A DNA stretch of 21,255 bases. Source: a virus. Shown in pieces: positions 45 through 16,923 of the stretch. The notes beneath the pieces are model-generated. The model was given only the letters and a program-made list of their open reading frames with translations, was not told the origin of the DNA and made no database searches. Location of the stretch: the IMG/VR virus record IMGVR_UViG_3300037134_000167, positions 1 to 21,255 of that record; one strand, given 5' to 3'. The stretch's first letter is position 1. Each line of letters begins with the position of its first letter. The translations under genes were made by a program, and so were the position numbers.

Positions 45-120
<76 letters not shown>

Positions 121-188: not shown

Positions 189-216
189 TGGTGGCTGTTT
201 TGGTGGCTGTTTTGGT
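189..216 (+). repeat. 12-bp tandem direct repeat, possible integrase arm sites
   Basis: Two exact copies of TGGTGGCTGTTT (189-200 and 201-212) are followed by the start of a third (TGGT, 213-216). They lie between the tRNA and the integrase, where tyrosine integrases bind direct-repeat arm sites. That role is inferred from position only. Confidence 0.6.
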
Positions 217-241: not shown

Positions 242-1267
242 ATGGCTAAAGCAAGTGTGAGAGGGGTATTCGAGTTGCCAGCCGGGTCCGGTTGCTGGTG
301 GATCAATTACTATGCCAATGGGAAACGGCACAGAGAAAAAGTTGGACGCCGTGGTGACGCACTTGCTCTGTATCAGAAACGGAAGGCAGATTCCCGGCGA
401 AAGATGAAGATGCCGGAGTTGGTACCGGGGAAGGTGATTACGTTCGGGCAGCTATCCGAAATGGCCGTGAACCACGCGGAGACTCACCTCAAGTCGCTTG
501 AGCACTACAAAACCAAGGACTCGATACTGCGAGAGCCATTCGGAGAACGTCCGGCGGCTGAGATTACGCCACAACAGATTAACGAGTGGCTCACCAAGCA
601 CTGCAGGACGCCAGCAACGGCGAACCGCTATCGAGCGTTTATATCGCTTGCTTACCGGCTAGGCATGGAGAACGGGAAGGCAGACAGCAACCCCGCTCGT
701 CTCGTCCGACTGCGAGCGGAGAACAATGCACGGCTACGCTTCTTGAGCCGGGAGGAATACAAGAAGCTGTTGGACATTTTCAAACGTGACAATCCCGACC
801 AAATACCGGCGTTCGTCGTGTCCGTGTATACCGGGATGCGGTGGGGAGAACAATACTCGCTCACTTGGGCGCAGGTAGACCTGAAACGTAAAGTAGTCCG
901 GTTGACGACCACCAAAAACGGATCGGCGAGAAACGTGCCGCTCAACTCGGTGACTCTGGACGCGCTGTTAGGCCAACGAACGATTGTCCCGCATGAAGCG
1001 GAGGACATGGTGTTCCCACGTCCCGGCCCCAGCTCAGATTGTCGCTGGTGGTTCGCGCCTGCTTTGGTGGAGGCGAAGATCGCTGACTACACCTGGCACA
1101 ACAACCGCCATACGTTCTGCTCGTGGCTTGCCTTGGCCGGGGTGAGCATCAAGGAAATTCAAGTCTTGGCGGGGCACAAAACCATCACCATGGCAGCACG
1201 TTACGCGCACCTTTCGCCCGAGGCTACGGCCTCAGCATCGGAGCGGCTGGTGATAGCTCCAAAATGA
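242..1267 (+). CDS. int: Tyrosine site-specific integrase
   Basis: This 341-residue phage integrase would catalyse integration and excision at the neighbouring tRNA. The catalytic set of the family is visible: R200 in YTGMRWGEQ, K225 in TTTKNGSARN, H286-N-N-R289, H312 in LAGHKT, and nucleophile Y321 in AARYAHL. Residues about 1-55 form a small N-terminal arm-binding-like domain, about 65-155 the core-binding domain (ITFGQLSEMAVNH onward), and about 170-335 the catalytic domain. The start is supported by a strong AGGAGG 4 nt upstream of the ATG. The last 67 bp overlap the 3' end of the convergent HTH gene at 1201-1440, which could couple their expression. Length and motif order are normal for the family. 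Confidence 0.95.
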   Translation: MAKASVRGVFELPAGSGCWWINYYANGKRHREKVGRRGDALALYQKRKADSRRKMKMPELVPGKVITFGQLSEMAVNHAETHLKSLEHYKTKDSILREPFGERPAAEITPQQINEWLTKHCRTPATANRYRAFISLAYRLGMENGKADSNPARLVRLRAENNARLRFLSREEYKKLLDIFKRDNPDQIPAFVVSVYTGMRWGEQYSLTWAQVDLKRKVVRLTTTKNGSARNVPLNSVTLDALLGQRTIVPHEAEDMVFPRPGPSSDCRWWFAPALVEAKIADYTWHNNRHTFCSWLALAGVSIKEIQVLAGHKTITMAARYAHLSPEATASASERLVIAPK

Positions 1268-1440
1268 TTCGCCGATGCGTAACGGACCAGGGAGGCGTGG
1301 GTAACCAAAACTTTTTTACCGATTCTTCGTGTGTCAAGTCCTTTTGATGCAATGATGTAATCCAGGGACCGGACCGAGATTGATAGCTGGCGGGCAGCCT
1401 CTCTGCGATCATAAAGTAGCCTTGTGCTTGCGTCATTCAT
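1201..1440 (-). CDS. Small HTH DNA-binding protein, excisionase-like
   Basis: The product is 79 residues (MNDASTRLLYDRREAARQLS...). Residues about 9-60 match the pattern of the excisionase/MerR-type HTH_17 fold: DRREAARQLSISVRSLDYII for the helices, then RIGKKVLVTHASLVRYA for the wing. A small HTH protein beside an integrase suggests a recombination directionality factor, though other control roles are possible. The ATG at 1440 is chosen because it directly follows the same 18-nt element that precedes the GIY-YIG gene (1437-1454 and 2267-2284). There is no ribosome-binding site, so a leaderless start is likely. The frame stays open upstream to an ATG at 1617, which would give 138 residues, and that longer start cannot be excluded. 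The 3' end overlaps the integrase gene antisense by 67 bp. Confidence 0.65.
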   Translation of the reverse strand: MNDASTRLLYDRREAARQLSISVRSLDYIIASKGLDTRRIGKKVLVTHASLVRYASANHFGAITSRSDAEAVASGERCA

Positions 1441-1468
1441 GAAAATAAATACCCAGGCGGAGTGGCAT
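1437..1468 (-). promoter_or_regulatory. Promoter/leader element of the HTH gene, copy 1
   Basis: Read on the minus strand, GGGTATTTATTTTCATGA ends in the ATG of the HTH gene. It matches copy 2 (2267-2284) at 16 of 18 positions. TATTTA sits where a -10 box would place transcription start at or near the A of the ATG, suggesting a leaderless mRNA. ATACCC (1449-1454) faces TGGCAT (1463-1468) across 8 nt, a degraded form of the perfect palindrome in copy 2. Promoter function is inferred. Confidence 0.45.
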
Positions 1469-1617
1469 AGCCCAAATATCGCCCCAAAAGATAAGCCACC
1501 CTCGATATGGGGGTGGCTTTTGATGCGCCTGGCAAGCTCGCTGACGCGGATGGCGCCTTTGTGGGTCAGAAGCTGGGTGACCAGATCGGTGGGGTCTTTG
1601 CTGGCTGCAGGAGGCAT
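1441..1617 (-). other. In-frame upstream extension of the HTH gene, coupled to the GIY-YIG stop codon
   Basis: An ATG at 1615-1617 overlaps the stop of the GIY-YIG gene as TAATG and opens a frame (MPPAASKDPTDLVTQLLTHK...) with no stop before it enters the HTH gene. Its first 35 or so residues look coding-like and rich in helix-forming residues. It then runs through a terminator-like hairpin (1493-1519) and the repeated promoter-like element. Either the HTH protein has a long form of 138 residues, or this is the stub of an older gene that lost its end. I do not recognise a function. Confidence 0.35.
1493..1519 (-). terminator. Terminator-like hairpin inside an open frame
   Basis: A perfect 9-bp inverted repeat, AAGCCACCC (1493-1501) with GGGTGGCTT (1511-1519), has a 9-nt loop. 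On the minus strand it is followed by ATCTTTTGG, a weak T tract. It lies 52 nt before the HTH start at 1440, matching the 51-nt spacing between the terminator at 2322-2353 and the GIY-YIG start. Confidence 0.5.
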
Positions 1618-2270
1618 TACAGACCACCCGTGATGTTGTAGCCGTGCTCGGGGTCGTTGGCCTGGAGTTTCGATATCCAAAAGTTTTCCAAGTCCGTTAA
1701 CTCACTCAGCGTGGTCGTGGTGGCCACAACCTCCCAAACGAAAGTTTGCTCTCCATGCATACGCAACGCGGCGTGAAACTCCGCACCCTGCCCGTTATCA
1801 GCCAAACGTGTGTGAGCACGCCACCTTTTCACAACGCTTCCACCCGTTTGCCCTACATACACTTTGCCGTCTATCTTGTTGGTGACTCTATAGATATGAC
1901 CACAGCTCTGACTGGTGAGTGGAAGCTGCCTACTCGTTTTCCGTGTGGGGCACGCTAGACGGTGACTCTGGGTCAGGGCAGTTTGTATGAGCGCGGAGAG
2001 TGTCTCCTTGGCAGCCTCATCCAGATCAGGTTTTGTGCCGAGCTTTGACAACTCGATCTGCACGGGGTCACGGAGATCACGCTCCGCTTGCGCTACCTTT
2101 TCAGCCTGCTCCCAGGACCGCGTCTTGGCGGAGACAGTCGCAACCTTGCCATCCTCGTAAATGTAGAGTGATTTCCTGCAATTGCACCGCCTCCAGTTCC
2201 TGTCTTGTTTCTTCGGGCAATTAGCTGAATGCCTGGTGAAGACGGTAATTGATGCAGTGCTTCCGCTCAT
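1617..2270 (-). CDS. GIY-YIG endonuclease with an integrase-like N-terminal domain
   Basis: The 217-residue product has a C-terminal GIY-YIG nuclease domain at about 124-217: HIYRVTNK, then KVYVGQTG, then KRWRAH with the expected arginine, LENFWISKL with the expected catalytic glutamate (E195), and a final YNITGG typical of the family. The N-terminus (about 8-70) has HSANCPKKQDRNWRRC, CRKSLYIY and SAKTRSWEQAE. From memory this pattern resembles the N-terminal DNA-binding region of some tyrosine integrases, with C18, C29 and C31 as possible metal ligands. No recombinase catalytic core is present. The gene would thus make a site-directed nuclease, perhaps a homing-type enzyme. It has no ribosome-binding site, follows the promoter-like element at 2267-2298, and its stop overlaps the next frame as TAATG. 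Confidence 0.8.
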   Translation of the reverse strand: MSGSTASITVFTRHSANCPKKQDRNWRRCNCRKSLYIYEDGKVATVSAKTRSWEQAEKVAQAERDLRDPVQIELSKLGTKPDLDEAAKETLSALIQTALTQSHRLACPTRKTSRQLPLTSQSCGHIYRVTNKIDGKVYVGQTGGSVVKRWRAHTRLADNGQGAEFHAALRMHGEQTFVWEVVATTTTLSELTDLENFWISKLQANDPEHGYNITGGL

Positions 2271-2298
2271 GAAAAGAGATACCCGGACGAGGGGGTAT
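2267..2298 (-). promoter_or_regulatory. Promoter/leader element of the GIY-YIG gene, copy 2
   Basis: Read on the minus strand, GGGTATCTCTTTTCATGA leads directly into the ATG at 2270. Copy 1 before the HTH gene differs at 2 of 18 positions. Within it ATACCC (2279-2284) and GGGTAT (2293-2298) form a perfect 6-bp inverted repeat with an 8-nt spacer, which looks like an operator. TATCTC placed 5 nt before the ATG suggests leaderless transcription. The function is inferred from conservation and position. Confidence 0.45.
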
Positions 2299-2321
2299 TC
2301 CCCTGATTACGGCAATCAACA

Positions 2322-2355
2322 AAATAGCCGCCTCGGCATTGAAGCGGCTATTTTT
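2322..2355 (-). terminator. Bidirectional intrinsic terminator
   Basis: A perfect 10-bp stem, AAATAGCCGC (2322-2331) with GCGGCTATTT (2344-2353), has a 12-nt loop. The minus-strand 3' side reads GCGGCTATTTTGTTG and would end the two-gene unit that starts at 3858. The plus side has five T residues (2351-2355). Confidence 0.8.
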
Positions 2356-3858: not shown

Positions 3859-3970
3859 GATTAACACCTCTGATCTAGCGATCCGGAAGTCGGATTCTCA
3901 TTCACTGTGATTTTTTAGGGCTCAACAGATTATTGGGGGCTGAATGAGGCGGGGTAAGGGTGCGAAGGGA

Positions 3971-4091
3971 CCATGGTCCAGTAGACCATGGGGCTGGTCC
4001 AGTAGATTTGACCCATGGTCTACTGGACTAGGGGGGTGGTCCAGTAGATTTGACCATGGTCCACTGGACCAGGGGGGTAGTCTACTAGACC
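3971..4091. repeat. Nested inverted and tandem repeats (GGTCCAGTAGA family)
   Basis: The core GGTCCAGTAGA occurs at 3975-3985, 3996-4006 and 4038-4048. Its reverse form TCTACTGGACC, with up to one change, occurs at 4019-4029, 4060-4070 and 4081-4091. A larger unit is repeated in tandem at 3996-4037 (42 nt) and 4038-4078 (41 nt), each ending in AGGGGGGT. Perfect short palindromes include CCATGGTC/GACCATGG (3971-3978/3984-3991) and GGTCCA-C-TGGACC (4058-4070). Such arrays are typical of initiator iterons or multi-operator regions. Confidence 0.85.
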
Positions 4092-4110
4092 ACCAAAGTA
4101 GATCAACGGG

Positions 4111-5359: not shown

Positions 5360-5501
5360 CCCGTGCCCACACATCCATACGTCTCTGGCGTGGTCGCCCG
5401 TCTCCCGCGCCAAGTGGGTATGCGTCGATTGCGGAGTCGATGTCTCGGCATCGAGGCAGCGACCTGTGCCAACCTCAGCACCTGCAGGATACGTGCACTG
5501 A
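5337..5501 (+). CDS. Small zinc-finger-like protein
   Basis: The ATG at 5337 lies inside the end of the membrane protein gene (23-bp overlap), with AAAGGT about 7 nt upstream. It encodes 54 residues. C10-P-H12 and C29-V-D-C32-G form a plausible metal-binding pair of knuckles around a 16-residue loop, and the C-terminus is proline-rich. Its stop overlaps the next gene start as TGATG. The cysteine spacing and the double overlap with neighbours support a real gene, although no family was recognised. Confidence 0.6.
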   Translation: MTTYQPSNPCPHIHTSLAWSPVSRAKWVCVDCGVDVSASRQRPVPTSAPAGYVH

Positions 5502-6286
5502 TGCCATCATCCCCCGGCGGTATTTGTAGATCGTGCAATAGCCGCGCCACTGCAGGAGGTTACTGCGATCGTCATCAGCACACAAAGCGCGAACAGGATC
5601 ATCTCTACGACAGGTATCGCGCTGATGATCCTGTACGTGCACTATATCGTTGCAAGCGCTGGCTGCGTGTAAGACAAGTTGTGCTGCGCCGAGATGCGCT
5701 GTGTGTGTCGTGCGGTCACCGAGCAGCCACTGACGTTGACCACATCTTGTCGGCGAGAATCGTGCTGGATAACTGGGGACGCGATGCGTTCTATGACGTG
5801 GATCGACTTCAAGGTTTATGTCATAAGTGCCATAGTCAGAAAACTGCTGTCGAATGCGGTTTCACGGGTAAGAAGGGCACGAAGATCACTGATCTCGGTG
5901 ATCGCAGCAACACAACAGTTGTGTGCGGACAAGCAGGGAGCGGCAAGAGCACCTACGTTGAAAACCACAAGCAACCTATGGATGCGGTGTTCGATTACGA
6001 CGTTATTATGCACGAGATTACCGGCTTGCCTATGCATCAAGGCTTGCCTGGCGCTGTAGGTAGTGTCCTTGCACAGCGCGATCAGTGGATCGAAGCTACG
6101 AGATACAACAACAACCACTGTTGGTTGATCGTCAGTTCGCCTAAGGCTGCCATCGTGGGAATGATGCGCGATGCTGGTGCCGCAGTGATCACGATGGACA
6201 CCTCTGATGAGGAGTGTCAGCGGCGTCTGAGACAGCGCTTTATCACTGAGACGATGCAACAAACCTCAGCAAACACGCACGTTTGA
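5501..6286 (+). CDS. HNH endonuclease fused to a P-loop (kinase-like) domain
   Basis: The 261-residue product starts at the ATG that overlaps the previous stop (TGATG). Residues 9-25 form a small Cys/His knuckle (CRSC, then CDRH). An HNH nuclease domain follows at about 65-112, with C68-V-S-C71, the D80-H81 active-site pair and C107-H-K-C110. After a short linker comes a P-loop domain: Walker A GQAGSGKS (143-150), then FDYDVI (164-169), and a late VITMDTSDEECQRRLRQR stretch typical of small nucleotide or polynucleotide kinase-like folds. HNH proteins next to terminase genes assist DNA packaging cleavage in several phages. The fused P-loop suggests end processing or ATP-dependent control, which is inference. 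Confidence 0.8.
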   Translation: MPSSPGGICRSCNSRATAGGYCDRHQHTKREQDHLYDRYRADDPVRALYRCKRWLRVRQVVLRRDALCVSCGHRAATDVDHILSARIVLDNWGRDAFYDVDRLQGLCHKCHSQKTAVECGFTGKKGTKITDLGDRSNTTVVCGQAGSGKSTYVENHKQPMDAVFDYDVIMHEITGLPMHQGLPGAVGSVLAQRDQWIEATRYNNNHCWLIVSSPKAAIVGMMRDAGAAVITMDTSDEECQRRLRQRFITETMQQTSANTHV

Positions 6287-8337: not shown

Positions 8338-9144
8338 ATGAGTGAGGAAAAACAGTTCTATACGTACCTGTATCTACGGGAGGATGGCACTCCCTTTTAC
8401 GTGGGTAAGGGGCATGGCAAGCGAGCGTATGTAAAACACCGCAATGGACCACCGGTAGATCATGCTCGCATCCTCATCCAGGATCACCCATCTGAGCAAG
8501 ATGCCCTTGCAGCCGAGATATTTTTGATTGCTTATTACGGTCGCAAAGATATAGGCACCGGGATACTCCGTAACCTCACGGATGGCGGTGAGAACCCGCC
8601 AAGCTCAAAGGGTAAACATGCCTCGGCAGCGACACGGGCTAAGATGCGCAAGCCCAAGCCATTGGGTCACGGGCAGGCTGTGAGCCGTGGCCGCATGGGG
8701 ATGGTTTTTACCGAGGAGCACTGCCAGCACATGCGTGAATCGCGACTCGGCGTGCCTAGCCAAAAAGTCATTAACCTCATTGGACAACAATTTGGCCGGT
8801 TGTATGTACTTGCCAGATCACACAATGTGGGTGTGGAGGCTGCATGGTTGTGTCGGTGTAATTGTGGCACCGAAAAAGTGATACGGGGGAGTGCTCTAAG
8901 AGAGCGCATGACGCGGAGTTGTGGCTGTCTGCATAGGGAGTTAACCTCGTTGGCCCACCGCAAAGACCTAACTGGACAAGTGTTTGGTCGCCTCACCGCC
9001 ATAAAGCGTGATGGGCACATCAACAATGAGATCGCTTGGCTGTGTCGGTGCGATTGTGGAAAAACAAGAAGGGTCGCCTATCCGCCTAAGTTTGCCTCCA
9101 CAAAAAAGTGCGGCTGCAACCGCCCGGGGGTTGTATGCCAATGA
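8338..9144 (+). CDS. GIY-YIG homing-type endonuclease with NUMOD3-like motifs and two CxCxCG repeats
   Basis: The 268-residue protein begins with a GIY-YIG domain (about 7-90): FYTYLYLREDGTPFYVGKGH, a basic helix, and AAEIFLIAYYG carrying the family glutamate. Two NUMOD3-like stretches follow (SKGKHASAATRAKMRK and FTEEHCQHMRESRLG). The C-terminal half has two copies of a roughly 60-residue repeat: IGQQFGRLYVL...WLCRCNCG...SCGCL and LTGQVFGRLTAI...WLCRCDCG...KCGCN. These probably bind metal and DNA. This is the layout of mobile homing endonucleases. The ATG at 8338 is preferred, with GAGG about 10 nt upstream. The gene sits between the capsid terminator and the large terminase, and its stop overlaps a terminase start codon. 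Confidence 0.85.
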   Translation: MSEEKQFYTYLYLREDGTPFYVGKGHGKRAYVKHRNGPPVDHARILIQDHPSEQDALAAEIFLIAYYGRKDIGTGILRNLTDGGENPPSSKGKHASAATRAKMRKPKPLGHGQAVSRGRMGMVFTEEHCQHMRESRLGVPSQKVINLIGQQFGRLYVLARSHNVGVEAAWLCRCNCGTEKVIRGSALRERMTRSCGCLHRELTSLAHRKDLTGQVFGRLTAIKRDGHINNEIAWLCRCDCGKTRRVAYPPKFASTKKCGCNRPGVVCQ

Positions 9145-15950: not shown

Positions 15951-16186
15951 TGGCAAACGCTGTGGCAGGTCCTGGATGTGCGGTATATCGAGCGTTGAGT
16001 GGTCTTGGAGTCGTCCCCGGCCATTGTAAAGAGATCACCATCAAGATCGCCTGCGATCATGCGGTCACCATCACCTACGAGTGCTGGCTGATCGATGAGA
16101 TCGATGGCCCGATTGCTGAGGCAGTGATCTCAGACGCTCGCGATGCCAAGTCGAAAATAAACTATACCAGACCGGAGGAGCTGTAA
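15950..16186 (+). CDS. Hypothetical small phage protein
   Basis: This 78-residue protein is coupled at both ends (TGATG before, TAATG after), which supports expression with the tail genes. Residues about 25-55 are beta-rich (HCKEITIKIACDHAVTITYE), followed by an acidic helix (AEAVISDARDAKSKIN). It has three cysteines and no signal or membrane segment. No family was recognised. Its location directly before the glycosyltransferase makes a related role possible but unproven. Confidence 0.75.
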   Translation: MANAVAGPGCAVYRALSGLGVVPGHCKEITIKIACDHAVTITYECWLIDEIDGPIAEAVISDARDAKSKINYTRPEEL

Positions 16187-16923
16187 TGTCGGATTTGCCT
16201 CAAGTTAGTGGGATTCTCCCAGTCGGGTACGGCGACAAATACTTTCGCGTTGCCGCTGATGCGTTTCTCGCCTCTACATATGACGGCGAGATTGAGCTGG
16301 TGATCCTCGACAACAACGAGTCTCCACTCGATCCAAGCCTGCTGCCTGACGATCCGCGTGTGAAGTATTACCATTGCGATCGCATGCCTGTAGGCGCCCT
16401 ACGCAACCTCGGCACGAGTTACGCAACCGGCGATATCTTCGTCACGATCGACGAGGACGATTTCAGCGGCCCGGAGCGTGTGAGCAAGCAGGTCGATCGC
16501 CTCCTCAGCACGGGTAATTCTGTAACCGGCTTCCATTCGATCTTTTACTACGATATGAGCAACGGCCAGACGTACAAGTACTGGTATGAGCCCAACCGGC
16601 CTCACCCACCCTACGCGTGCGGCAGCAGCCAGATGTACACCCGCGCCTGGTGGATGGAGCACAAGTTCCCGGAGACCGGCATCGAGGATTACCTCTTCCA
16701 GCTTGAGGCCCTCAACGCCAACCAGCTCGACAGCATCGACGGAGCAGAGCTGCTGGTCGCCCGCGCCCACGGCGATTCAGTTTGCGCCCACGACCAGTAT
16801 GGCCGCCACAGGCAGTTTCCTCCGGTTCCGAAGGATGAGTTACCCGCAGAGTTCTATGCCGCGATCGCCCCTAAGGTCATCGCTAAAACCAAATCCGAAA
16901 CCAAAAGCAAAGCAGGAGTATAA
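16186..16923 (+). CDS. Family 2 (GT-A) glycosyltransferase
   Basis: The 245-residue protein has a GT2-like nucleotide-sugar domain: YFRVAADAFLASTYDGEIEL, then VILDNNES, then RVKYYHCDRMPVGALRNLGT, SYATGDIFVTIDEDD with the metal-binding D89-x-D91, and ERVSKQVDRL. Acceptor-side residues follow (GSSQMYTRAWWMEHKFPETG, then IEDYLFQL). The C-terminus is lysine-rich and probably flexible. It would transfer a sugar from a nucleotide donor. The gene sits within the tail operon, joined by TAATG to the previous gene and 3 nt before the first tail tube gene, so a tail protein is a likely acceptor. Host surface modification is an alternative. Confidence 0.85.
   Translation: MSDLPQVSGILPVGYGDKYFRVAADAFLASTYDGEIELVILDNNESPLDPSLLPDDPRVKYYHCDRMPVGALRNLGTSYATGDIFVTIDEDDFSGPERVSKQVDRLLSTGNSVTGFHSIFYYDMSNGQTYKYWYEPNRPHPPYACGSSQMYTRAWWMEHKFPETGIEDYLFQLEALNANQLDSIDGAELLVARAHGDSVCAHDQYGRHRQFPPVPKDELPAEFYAAIAPKVIAKTKSETKSKAGV

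What the first reader, a model, noticed from the sequence alone, without database searches (positions are those of the whole stretch)
1617..2270. GIY-YIG nuclease carrying an integrase-like DNA-binding N-terminus
The C-terminal half is a full GIY-YIG domain with arginine and glutamate in place. The N-terminal 70 residues resemble the arm-binding region of tyrosine integrases and there is no recombinase core. Such a swap could direct a nuclease to attachment-site-like sequences, perhaps to cut competing elements at the same tRNA, to promote recombination, or to spread as a homing gene.
Basis: partly seen in the sequence, partly recalled or inferred. Interest (0 to 1): 0.7.

Follow-up and report, generated by a model that had tools for sequence, protein, structure and literature searches.

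The report
Integrase-headed GIY-YIG nuclease in prophage
A prophage, probably of a soil bacterium, carries a small gene that joins the DNA-recognition head of a phage integrase to an intact DNA-cutting domain, so it probably makes a nuclease aimed at the attachment sites of other mobile elements, though only one copy is known and nothing has been tested at the bench.

Summary
ORF 2270..1617 (-), 217 aa, is one intact frame with two separately supported parts. Residues 4-77 are 64% identical (E 2e-30) to the N-terminus of a 421-aa tyrosine integrase from another virus contig, and related to the integrase of the acidobacterial phage Tunturi_4. Residues 123-216 are a GIY-YIG domain with the I-TevI active-site residues in place. 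There is no recombinase core in it. The order is reversed against ordinary GIY-YIG homing endonucleases, whose nuclease is N-terminal. The closest characterised design I found is Odn of phage ICP1: a replication-initiator DNA-binding domain fused ahead of a homing-type nuclease, which cuts the origin of the satellite it resembles. I read the window gene as the same trick with an integrase arm-binding domain, aimed at arm-type sites in attachment regions. Whether it defends the phage against competing elements or spreads by homing cannot be told from sequence. The chimera is a single instance: no second copy turned up in IMG/VR, phage records or one genome scan. Host genomes of the likely phylum could not be searched for the N-terminal domain alone. 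New variant of a known kind.

The parts
1617..2270 (-). Chimeric nuclease gene, 217 aa (ATG at 2270, TAA at 1619-1617)
2040..2261 (-). Integrase-type N-terminal (arm-binding-like) domain, residues 4-77; predicted beta-beta-beta-alpha; H14, C18, C29, C31 invariant in all integrase relatives (possible metal site)
   Evidence: 64% identity to the L022 integrase; alignments A2 and A5; AlphaFold2 models
1905..2039 (-). Linker, residues 78-122: predicted helix 85-105, then low-confidence 104-119. The first part aligns weakly with the Tunturi_4 integrase up to residue 100
1620..1904 (-). GIY-YIG nuclease domain, residues 123-217, active-site residues Y127, Y138, G140, R149, H153, E195, N212
   Evidence: Pfam E 1.9e-9; I-TevI alignment; Foldseek to 1ln0, TM 0.79 normalised by target
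2267..2303 (-). Leader of the nuclease gene, imperfect direct repeat of the HTH gene's leader; core GGTATCTCTTTTCATGA, possible leaderless promoter
1201..1617 (-). Downstream HTH_17 / excisionase-like gene: long form starts at ATG 1617 overlapping the nuclease stop (TAATG), short form at ATG 1440
   Evidence: Pfam HTH_17 E 6e-4, below cut-off; TIGR01764 E 0.017; sequence
1437..1473 (-). Second copy of the leader, at the ATG of the short HTH form (GGTATTTATTTTCATGA)
2321..2354 (.). Inverted repeat with A/T-rich ends, terminator-like, between the upstream gene and the nuclease gene
   Evidence: I7
242..1267 (+). The prophage's own tyrosine integrase, different N-terminus, convergent with the nuclease operon
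   Evidence: Pfam Phage_integrase 6.8e-26
45..120 (+). tRNA-Met (CAT), likely attachment gene of the prophage
189..216 (+). 12-bp tandem repeat TGGTGGCTGTTT, 2.3 copies, between tRNA and integrase: likely arm-type sites of the own integrase (inference)

Best explanation
The gene encodes a site-directed nuclease made by fusing the N-terminal, probably arm-binding, domain of a phage tyrosine integrase (of a kind seen in an acidobacterial phage) to a homing-type GIY-YIG catalytic domain. The integrase head binds arm-type repeats in the attachment region of elements that use an integrase with that head. The GIY-YIG domain, on a flexible tether, then cuts nearby. The most likely benefit is Odn-like: inactivating the attachment region of a competing prophage or satellite in the same cell. 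Shown by sequence: the two-domain chimera, intact active-site residues, reversed domain order, integrase ancestry of the head. Inferred: DNA binding by the head, target, cutting, benefit.
For: Head homologous to integrase N-termini only: every N-terminal relative found in viral contigs and phage records is the head of a tyrosine integrase, apart from one truncated or misjoined contig, L037. The chimera shares all 19 invariant columns of the five-sequence alignment, and head-to-head comparison shows pN 0.23-0.29 against pS 0.81-0.82, so the head has not decayed. The nuclease keeps the I-TevI active-site residues and its predicted fold matches I-TevI. Predicted head topology is three strands and a helix, as known for arm-binding domains. 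In the contig relatives read, the GIY-YIG domain is N-terminal, and the window holds such a canonical homing-type gene at 8338-9144 (sequence), so the reversed order here is unusual and matches Odn. The gene sits in the integration module beside an excisionase-like gene with a similar leader.
Against: One instance only; no close relative of the prophage to show conservation of the gene. Target elements not identified. Arm-binding domains can bind weakly alone (own knowledge). Structure search did not list a known integrase arm-binding domain for the head (inconclusive).
Confidence: 0.45

Rival explanations
1. A free-standing homing endonuclease that captured an integrase head as its DNA-binding domain. 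It cuts attachment or integrase regions lacking the gene and is copied in by repair, perhaps dragging the neighbouring integration module along.
For: GIY-YIG domain best matches homing endonucleases; domain shuffling among homing genes is documented (PMC10448857); location in the integration module; a second homing-type gene in the same window.
Against: No empty or occupied relatives to show homing; no canonical C-terminal DNA-binding repeats; a head borrowed from a different integrase type than the phage's own points to a target outside its own locus.
Confidence: 0.3
2. A non-functional or recently formed accidental fusion, an integrase remnant overrun by a nuclease gene, or an assembly join.
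For: Single copy; a short contig (L037) shows a head of the same type joined out of frame to a portal gene, so truncations or misassemblies of this head occur.
Against: Frame intact through both domains and linker; invariant head residues and nuclease active site kept; in-frame ATG/GTG/TTG codons occur at 1, 70 and 74 and then not until 137, so the nuclease has no start of its own between head and catalytic motif; no other integrase remnant downstream.
Confidence: 0.15
3. An integration or excision regulator of this phage itself: the head binds the phage's own attachment arms together with the excisionase-like HTH protein, and the nuclease nicks DNA or is a vestigial part.
For: Overlapping TAATG stop-start with an excisionase-like gene and a similar leader repeat; proximity to attachment tRNA and integrase.
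Against: The phage's own integrase has a different N-terminus and its own arm-like repeats; active site intact, so vestigial use is unlikely.
Confidence: 0.1

Closest known systems
Odn (Gp88), origin-directed nuclease of phage ICP1, and its putative coliphage counterparts (PMC8263062, PMC10448857)
   Same: N-terminal DNA-binding domain shared with a mobile element's own site-recognition protein, C-terminal GIY-YIG-type nuclease from a homing family, gene under 700 bp, phage-encoded.
   Different: Head is an integrase N-terminal domain, not RepA_N, so the expected target is an attachment region, not an origin; nuclease is a classical GIY-YIG domain rather than T5orf172; target element and activity not identified here.
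I-TevI and free-standing GIY-YIG homing endonucleases
   Same: Catalytic domain fold and active-site residues.
   Different: They carry the nuclease at the N-terminus and DNA-binding parts at the C-terminus; here the order is reversed and the known C-terminal modules are absent.
Arm-binding-domain tyrosine integrases (PMC8138268), type of Tunturi_4, L022, L033, L034, L036
   Same: N-terminal 75 residues.
   Different: No core-binding or catalytic domain; replaced by a nuclease.

Membership tests
GIY-YIG nuclease superfamily | GIY-YIG domain over curated cut-off with catalytic Tyr, Arg, Glu, Asn | tested here: met
   Pfam 38.1 bits vs 22.6; residues aligned with I-TevI; fold match
Tyrosine recombinase / integrase | Catalytic domain with R-K-H-R-H pentad and tyrosine | tested here: not met
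   No Phage_integrase match in the ORF; the related integrases align significantly with the locus only over their N-terminus
Integrase N-terminal domain of the Tunturi_4/L022/L033 type | Homology to the N-terminus of integrases and conservation of its invariant residues | tested here: met
   64% identity, E 2e-30; 19 invariant columns shared
Arm-binding domain (function) | Binds arm-type DNA sites | not testable with these tools
   Predicted three strands plus helix; no experiment
Arm-binding domain (fold) | Structural match to solved integrase arm-binding domains | tested here: inconclusive
   Only weak matches, best Z 4.8, including dsRBD- and AP2-like chains
Odn-type chimeric anti-element nuclease | N-terminal DNA-binding domain shared with a mobile element's own protein, ahead of a homing-type nuclease | tested here: met
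   compared with PMC8263062
Odn-type chimeric anti-element nuclease | Cuts the site recognised by that protein and protects the phage | not testable with these tools
   needs cleavage and infection assays
Odn-type chimeric anti-element nuclease (strict: RepA_N head, T5orf172 nuclease) | RepA_N DNA-binding domain and T5orf172 domain | tested here: not met
   Pfam reports GIY-YIG PF01541 and neither RepA_N nor T5orf172 at E up to 1; so it works like Odn at most, it is not an Odn homologue
Homing endonuclease | Spreads its own gene into empty alleles | tested here: inconclusive
   No related prophages found to compare occupied and empty loci

The most novel reading that the evidence does not exclude
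A nuclease directed to attachment-site arms: a phage has taken the arm-recognition head of rival elements' integrases and tied it to a GIY-YIG cutter, making an Odn-like weapon against the integration region rather than the replication origin.
Probability: 0.35. Interest if true: 0.75.

Novelty: new variant of a known kind. Interest (0 to 1): 0.52.

Why it matters
If it works as proposed, borrowing a rival's DNA-recognition head to build a nuclease would not be a peculiarity of replication initiators. Attachment-region proteins would be a second source, and one could look for such chimeras systematically by searching for integrase heads that lack a recombinase core. It would also be a natural nuclease with a modular aiming domain, testable with simple cleavage assays.

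Tried and rejected
Profile libraries for the N-terminus (Pfam, PHROGs, NCBIfam): no integrase family recognises it, so absence of a profile hit would have been a false refutation. PADLOC gave only homing-endonuclease and UzuA matches to the GIY-YIG part; a paper search for Uzume with GIY-YIG found nothing. PDB profile search with the head alignment: no match. Foldseek and VIA-align on the head listed no integrase arm-binding domain; weak dsRBD/AP2-like and other matches only, inconclusive. Plasmid search with the head: no match. Host genomes: the single genome scan used the full protein and gave a GIY-YIG relative only; a phylum-wide search needs a handle that could not be obtained. Close relatives of the prophage through its replication-like gene, integrase and HTH gene: none in IMG/VR by these pattern scans. 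Plasmid GIY-YIG relatives: the one annotated as a ribbon-helix-helix protein has the GIY-YIG domain first. Direct repeats upstream of the Tunturi_4 integrase (TTGGGAAAGT) are candidate arm sites, but 37% head identity is too low to transfer them. A mobile cassette bounded by the 830-bp-spaced leader repeat was considered; it is explained equally well by two similar promoters. Paper searches for a GIY-YIG nuclease with an integrase arm-binding head found none; the library holds open-licence papers only.

Full report
What was checked. The window is a 21,255-base virus record of IMG/VR that starts in host DNA at a tRNA-Met (45-120) and runs through a tyrosine integrase (242-1267), an early region, and head and tail genes (capsid, terminase, portal and protease by Pfam). 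It is the left part of an integrated tailed prophage. The finding lies on the minus strand, 2270 to 1617.

The protein. The 217-aa frame has no internal stop. Residues 123-204 match Pfam GIY-YIG well above the curated cut-off and PHROG homing endonucleases. The I-TevI alignment places Y127, Y138-V139-G140, R149, H153, E195 and N212 at the catalytic positions known for I-TevI; the 'GIY' motif reads HIY. The AlphaFold2 model of the whole protein has mean pLDDT 80, with block means of about 81-95 over the nuclease domain, and Foldseek returns I-TevI first.

The N-terminus. No profile library names residues 1-77, but direct searches do. They are 64% identical to the head of a 421-aa integrase (L022) and 64% to a 445-aa one (L033), about 55% to two more (L034, L036), and 37% to the integrase of Tunturi_4, a phage of the acidobacterium Tunturiibacter. 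L022, L033, L034 and Tunturi_4 carry a Phage_integrase catalytic domain above cut-off; L036 is a close relative of L034 by its translation. Nineteen columns are invariant across the chimera and four integrases, among them H14, C18, C29 and C31, which look like a metal site (inference). The predicted fold is strand-strand-strand-helix. Structure libraries did not list an integrase arm-binding domain, only weak resemblances, some of them to double-stranded-RNA-binding and AP2 domains; this is inconclusive. That the N-terminal domain of many phage integrases recognises arm sites is established for the class (PMC8138268), not tested for this subfamily.

Artefact or gene. In-frame start codons ATG, GTG or TTG occur at codons 1, 70 and 74 and then not until 137, so the nuclease could not have been translated from its own start between head and catalytic motif. 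Codon scores favour the same frame in head, linker and nuclease, weakly for the linker. Head comparison gives pN 0.23-0.29 against pS 0.81-0.82. A short contig, L037, shows what a broken version looks like: a head of this type runs out of frame into a portal gene. Misassembly at the junction is unlikely but needs the reads.

Surroundings. The nuclease stop overlaps the ATG of a downstream HTH gene (TAATG at 1619-1615), which resembles excisionases weakly. An internal ATG of that gene, at 1440, and the nuclease ATG, at 2270, lie in the same leader sequence, GGTAT-N-T-N-TTTTCATG, found only at these two places with up to two mismatches, 0.09 expected by chance. A TATCTC or TATTTA hexamer five bases before the ATG suggests leaderless promoters (inference). 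The prophage's own integrase has a different head and tandem repeats TGGTGGCTGTTT between tRNA and gene, likely its own arm sites.

Reading. In the thirteen genome- and virus-contig relatives of the nuclease domain that I read, the GIY-YIG domain comes at or near the likely start of the protein. In this prophage a second homing-type gene at 8338-9144 has the usual order, with zinc-type repeats after the nuclease (sequence; PHROG matches). The chimera reverses this order and takes its head from a protein whose job is to recognise attachment regions. The precedent is Odn of ICP1, whose RepA-type head guides a homing-derived nuclease to the satellite's origin (PMC8263062); coliphages appear to have evolved the same design separately (PMC10448857). 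By analogy the window protein should be guided to attachment arms of elements with that type of integrase. It is not an Odn homologue: neither RepA_N nor T5orf172 matches. The evidence reaches as far as 'a chimeric nuclease with an integrase head and an intact active site'. Target, activity and benefit are inference.

Limits. My recollection that integrases with this head are common in Acidobacteriota is a lead, not a test.

Noticed in passing
window 1437-1473 and 2267-2303: 37-nt imperfect direct repeat (73%), each copy holding the ATG of a minus-strand gene; looks like a shared leaderless promoter or operator.
   Followed up: partly
window 1520-1533 and 2362-2375: 14-bp perfect inverted repeat bracketing the nuclease gene; a pair this long appeared in 5 of 200 shuffles of the region, so possibly chance.
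   Followed up: partly
window 8338-9144 (+): Second homing-type gene between capsid and large terminase: GIY-YIG-like N-terminus followed by two CxC/CGC zinc-type repeats; its leader also holds GGGTATCT.
   Followed up: partly
window 5363-6286 (+): HNH endonuclease domain fused to a P-loop ATPase (AAA_33), matching a PHROG labelled terminase small subunit.
   Followed up: no
window 3969-4095: Three 42-bp imperfect repeats built of CCATGGTCCAGTAGACC-type palindromes, upstream of the replication-like gene; possible origin iterons or operator array.
   Followed up: no
window 16186-16923 (+): Glycosyltransferase family 2 gene inside the tail-gene region.
   Followed up: no
L037 1-420: Integrase head next to a tRNA-Ser, joined out of frame to a portal gene: truncated or misassembled contig.
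   Followed up: partly
L023 5678-5936: Repeats TTGGGAAAGT, doubled twice, upstream of the Tunturi_4 integrase; candidate arm-type sites for this integrase type.
   Followed up: no
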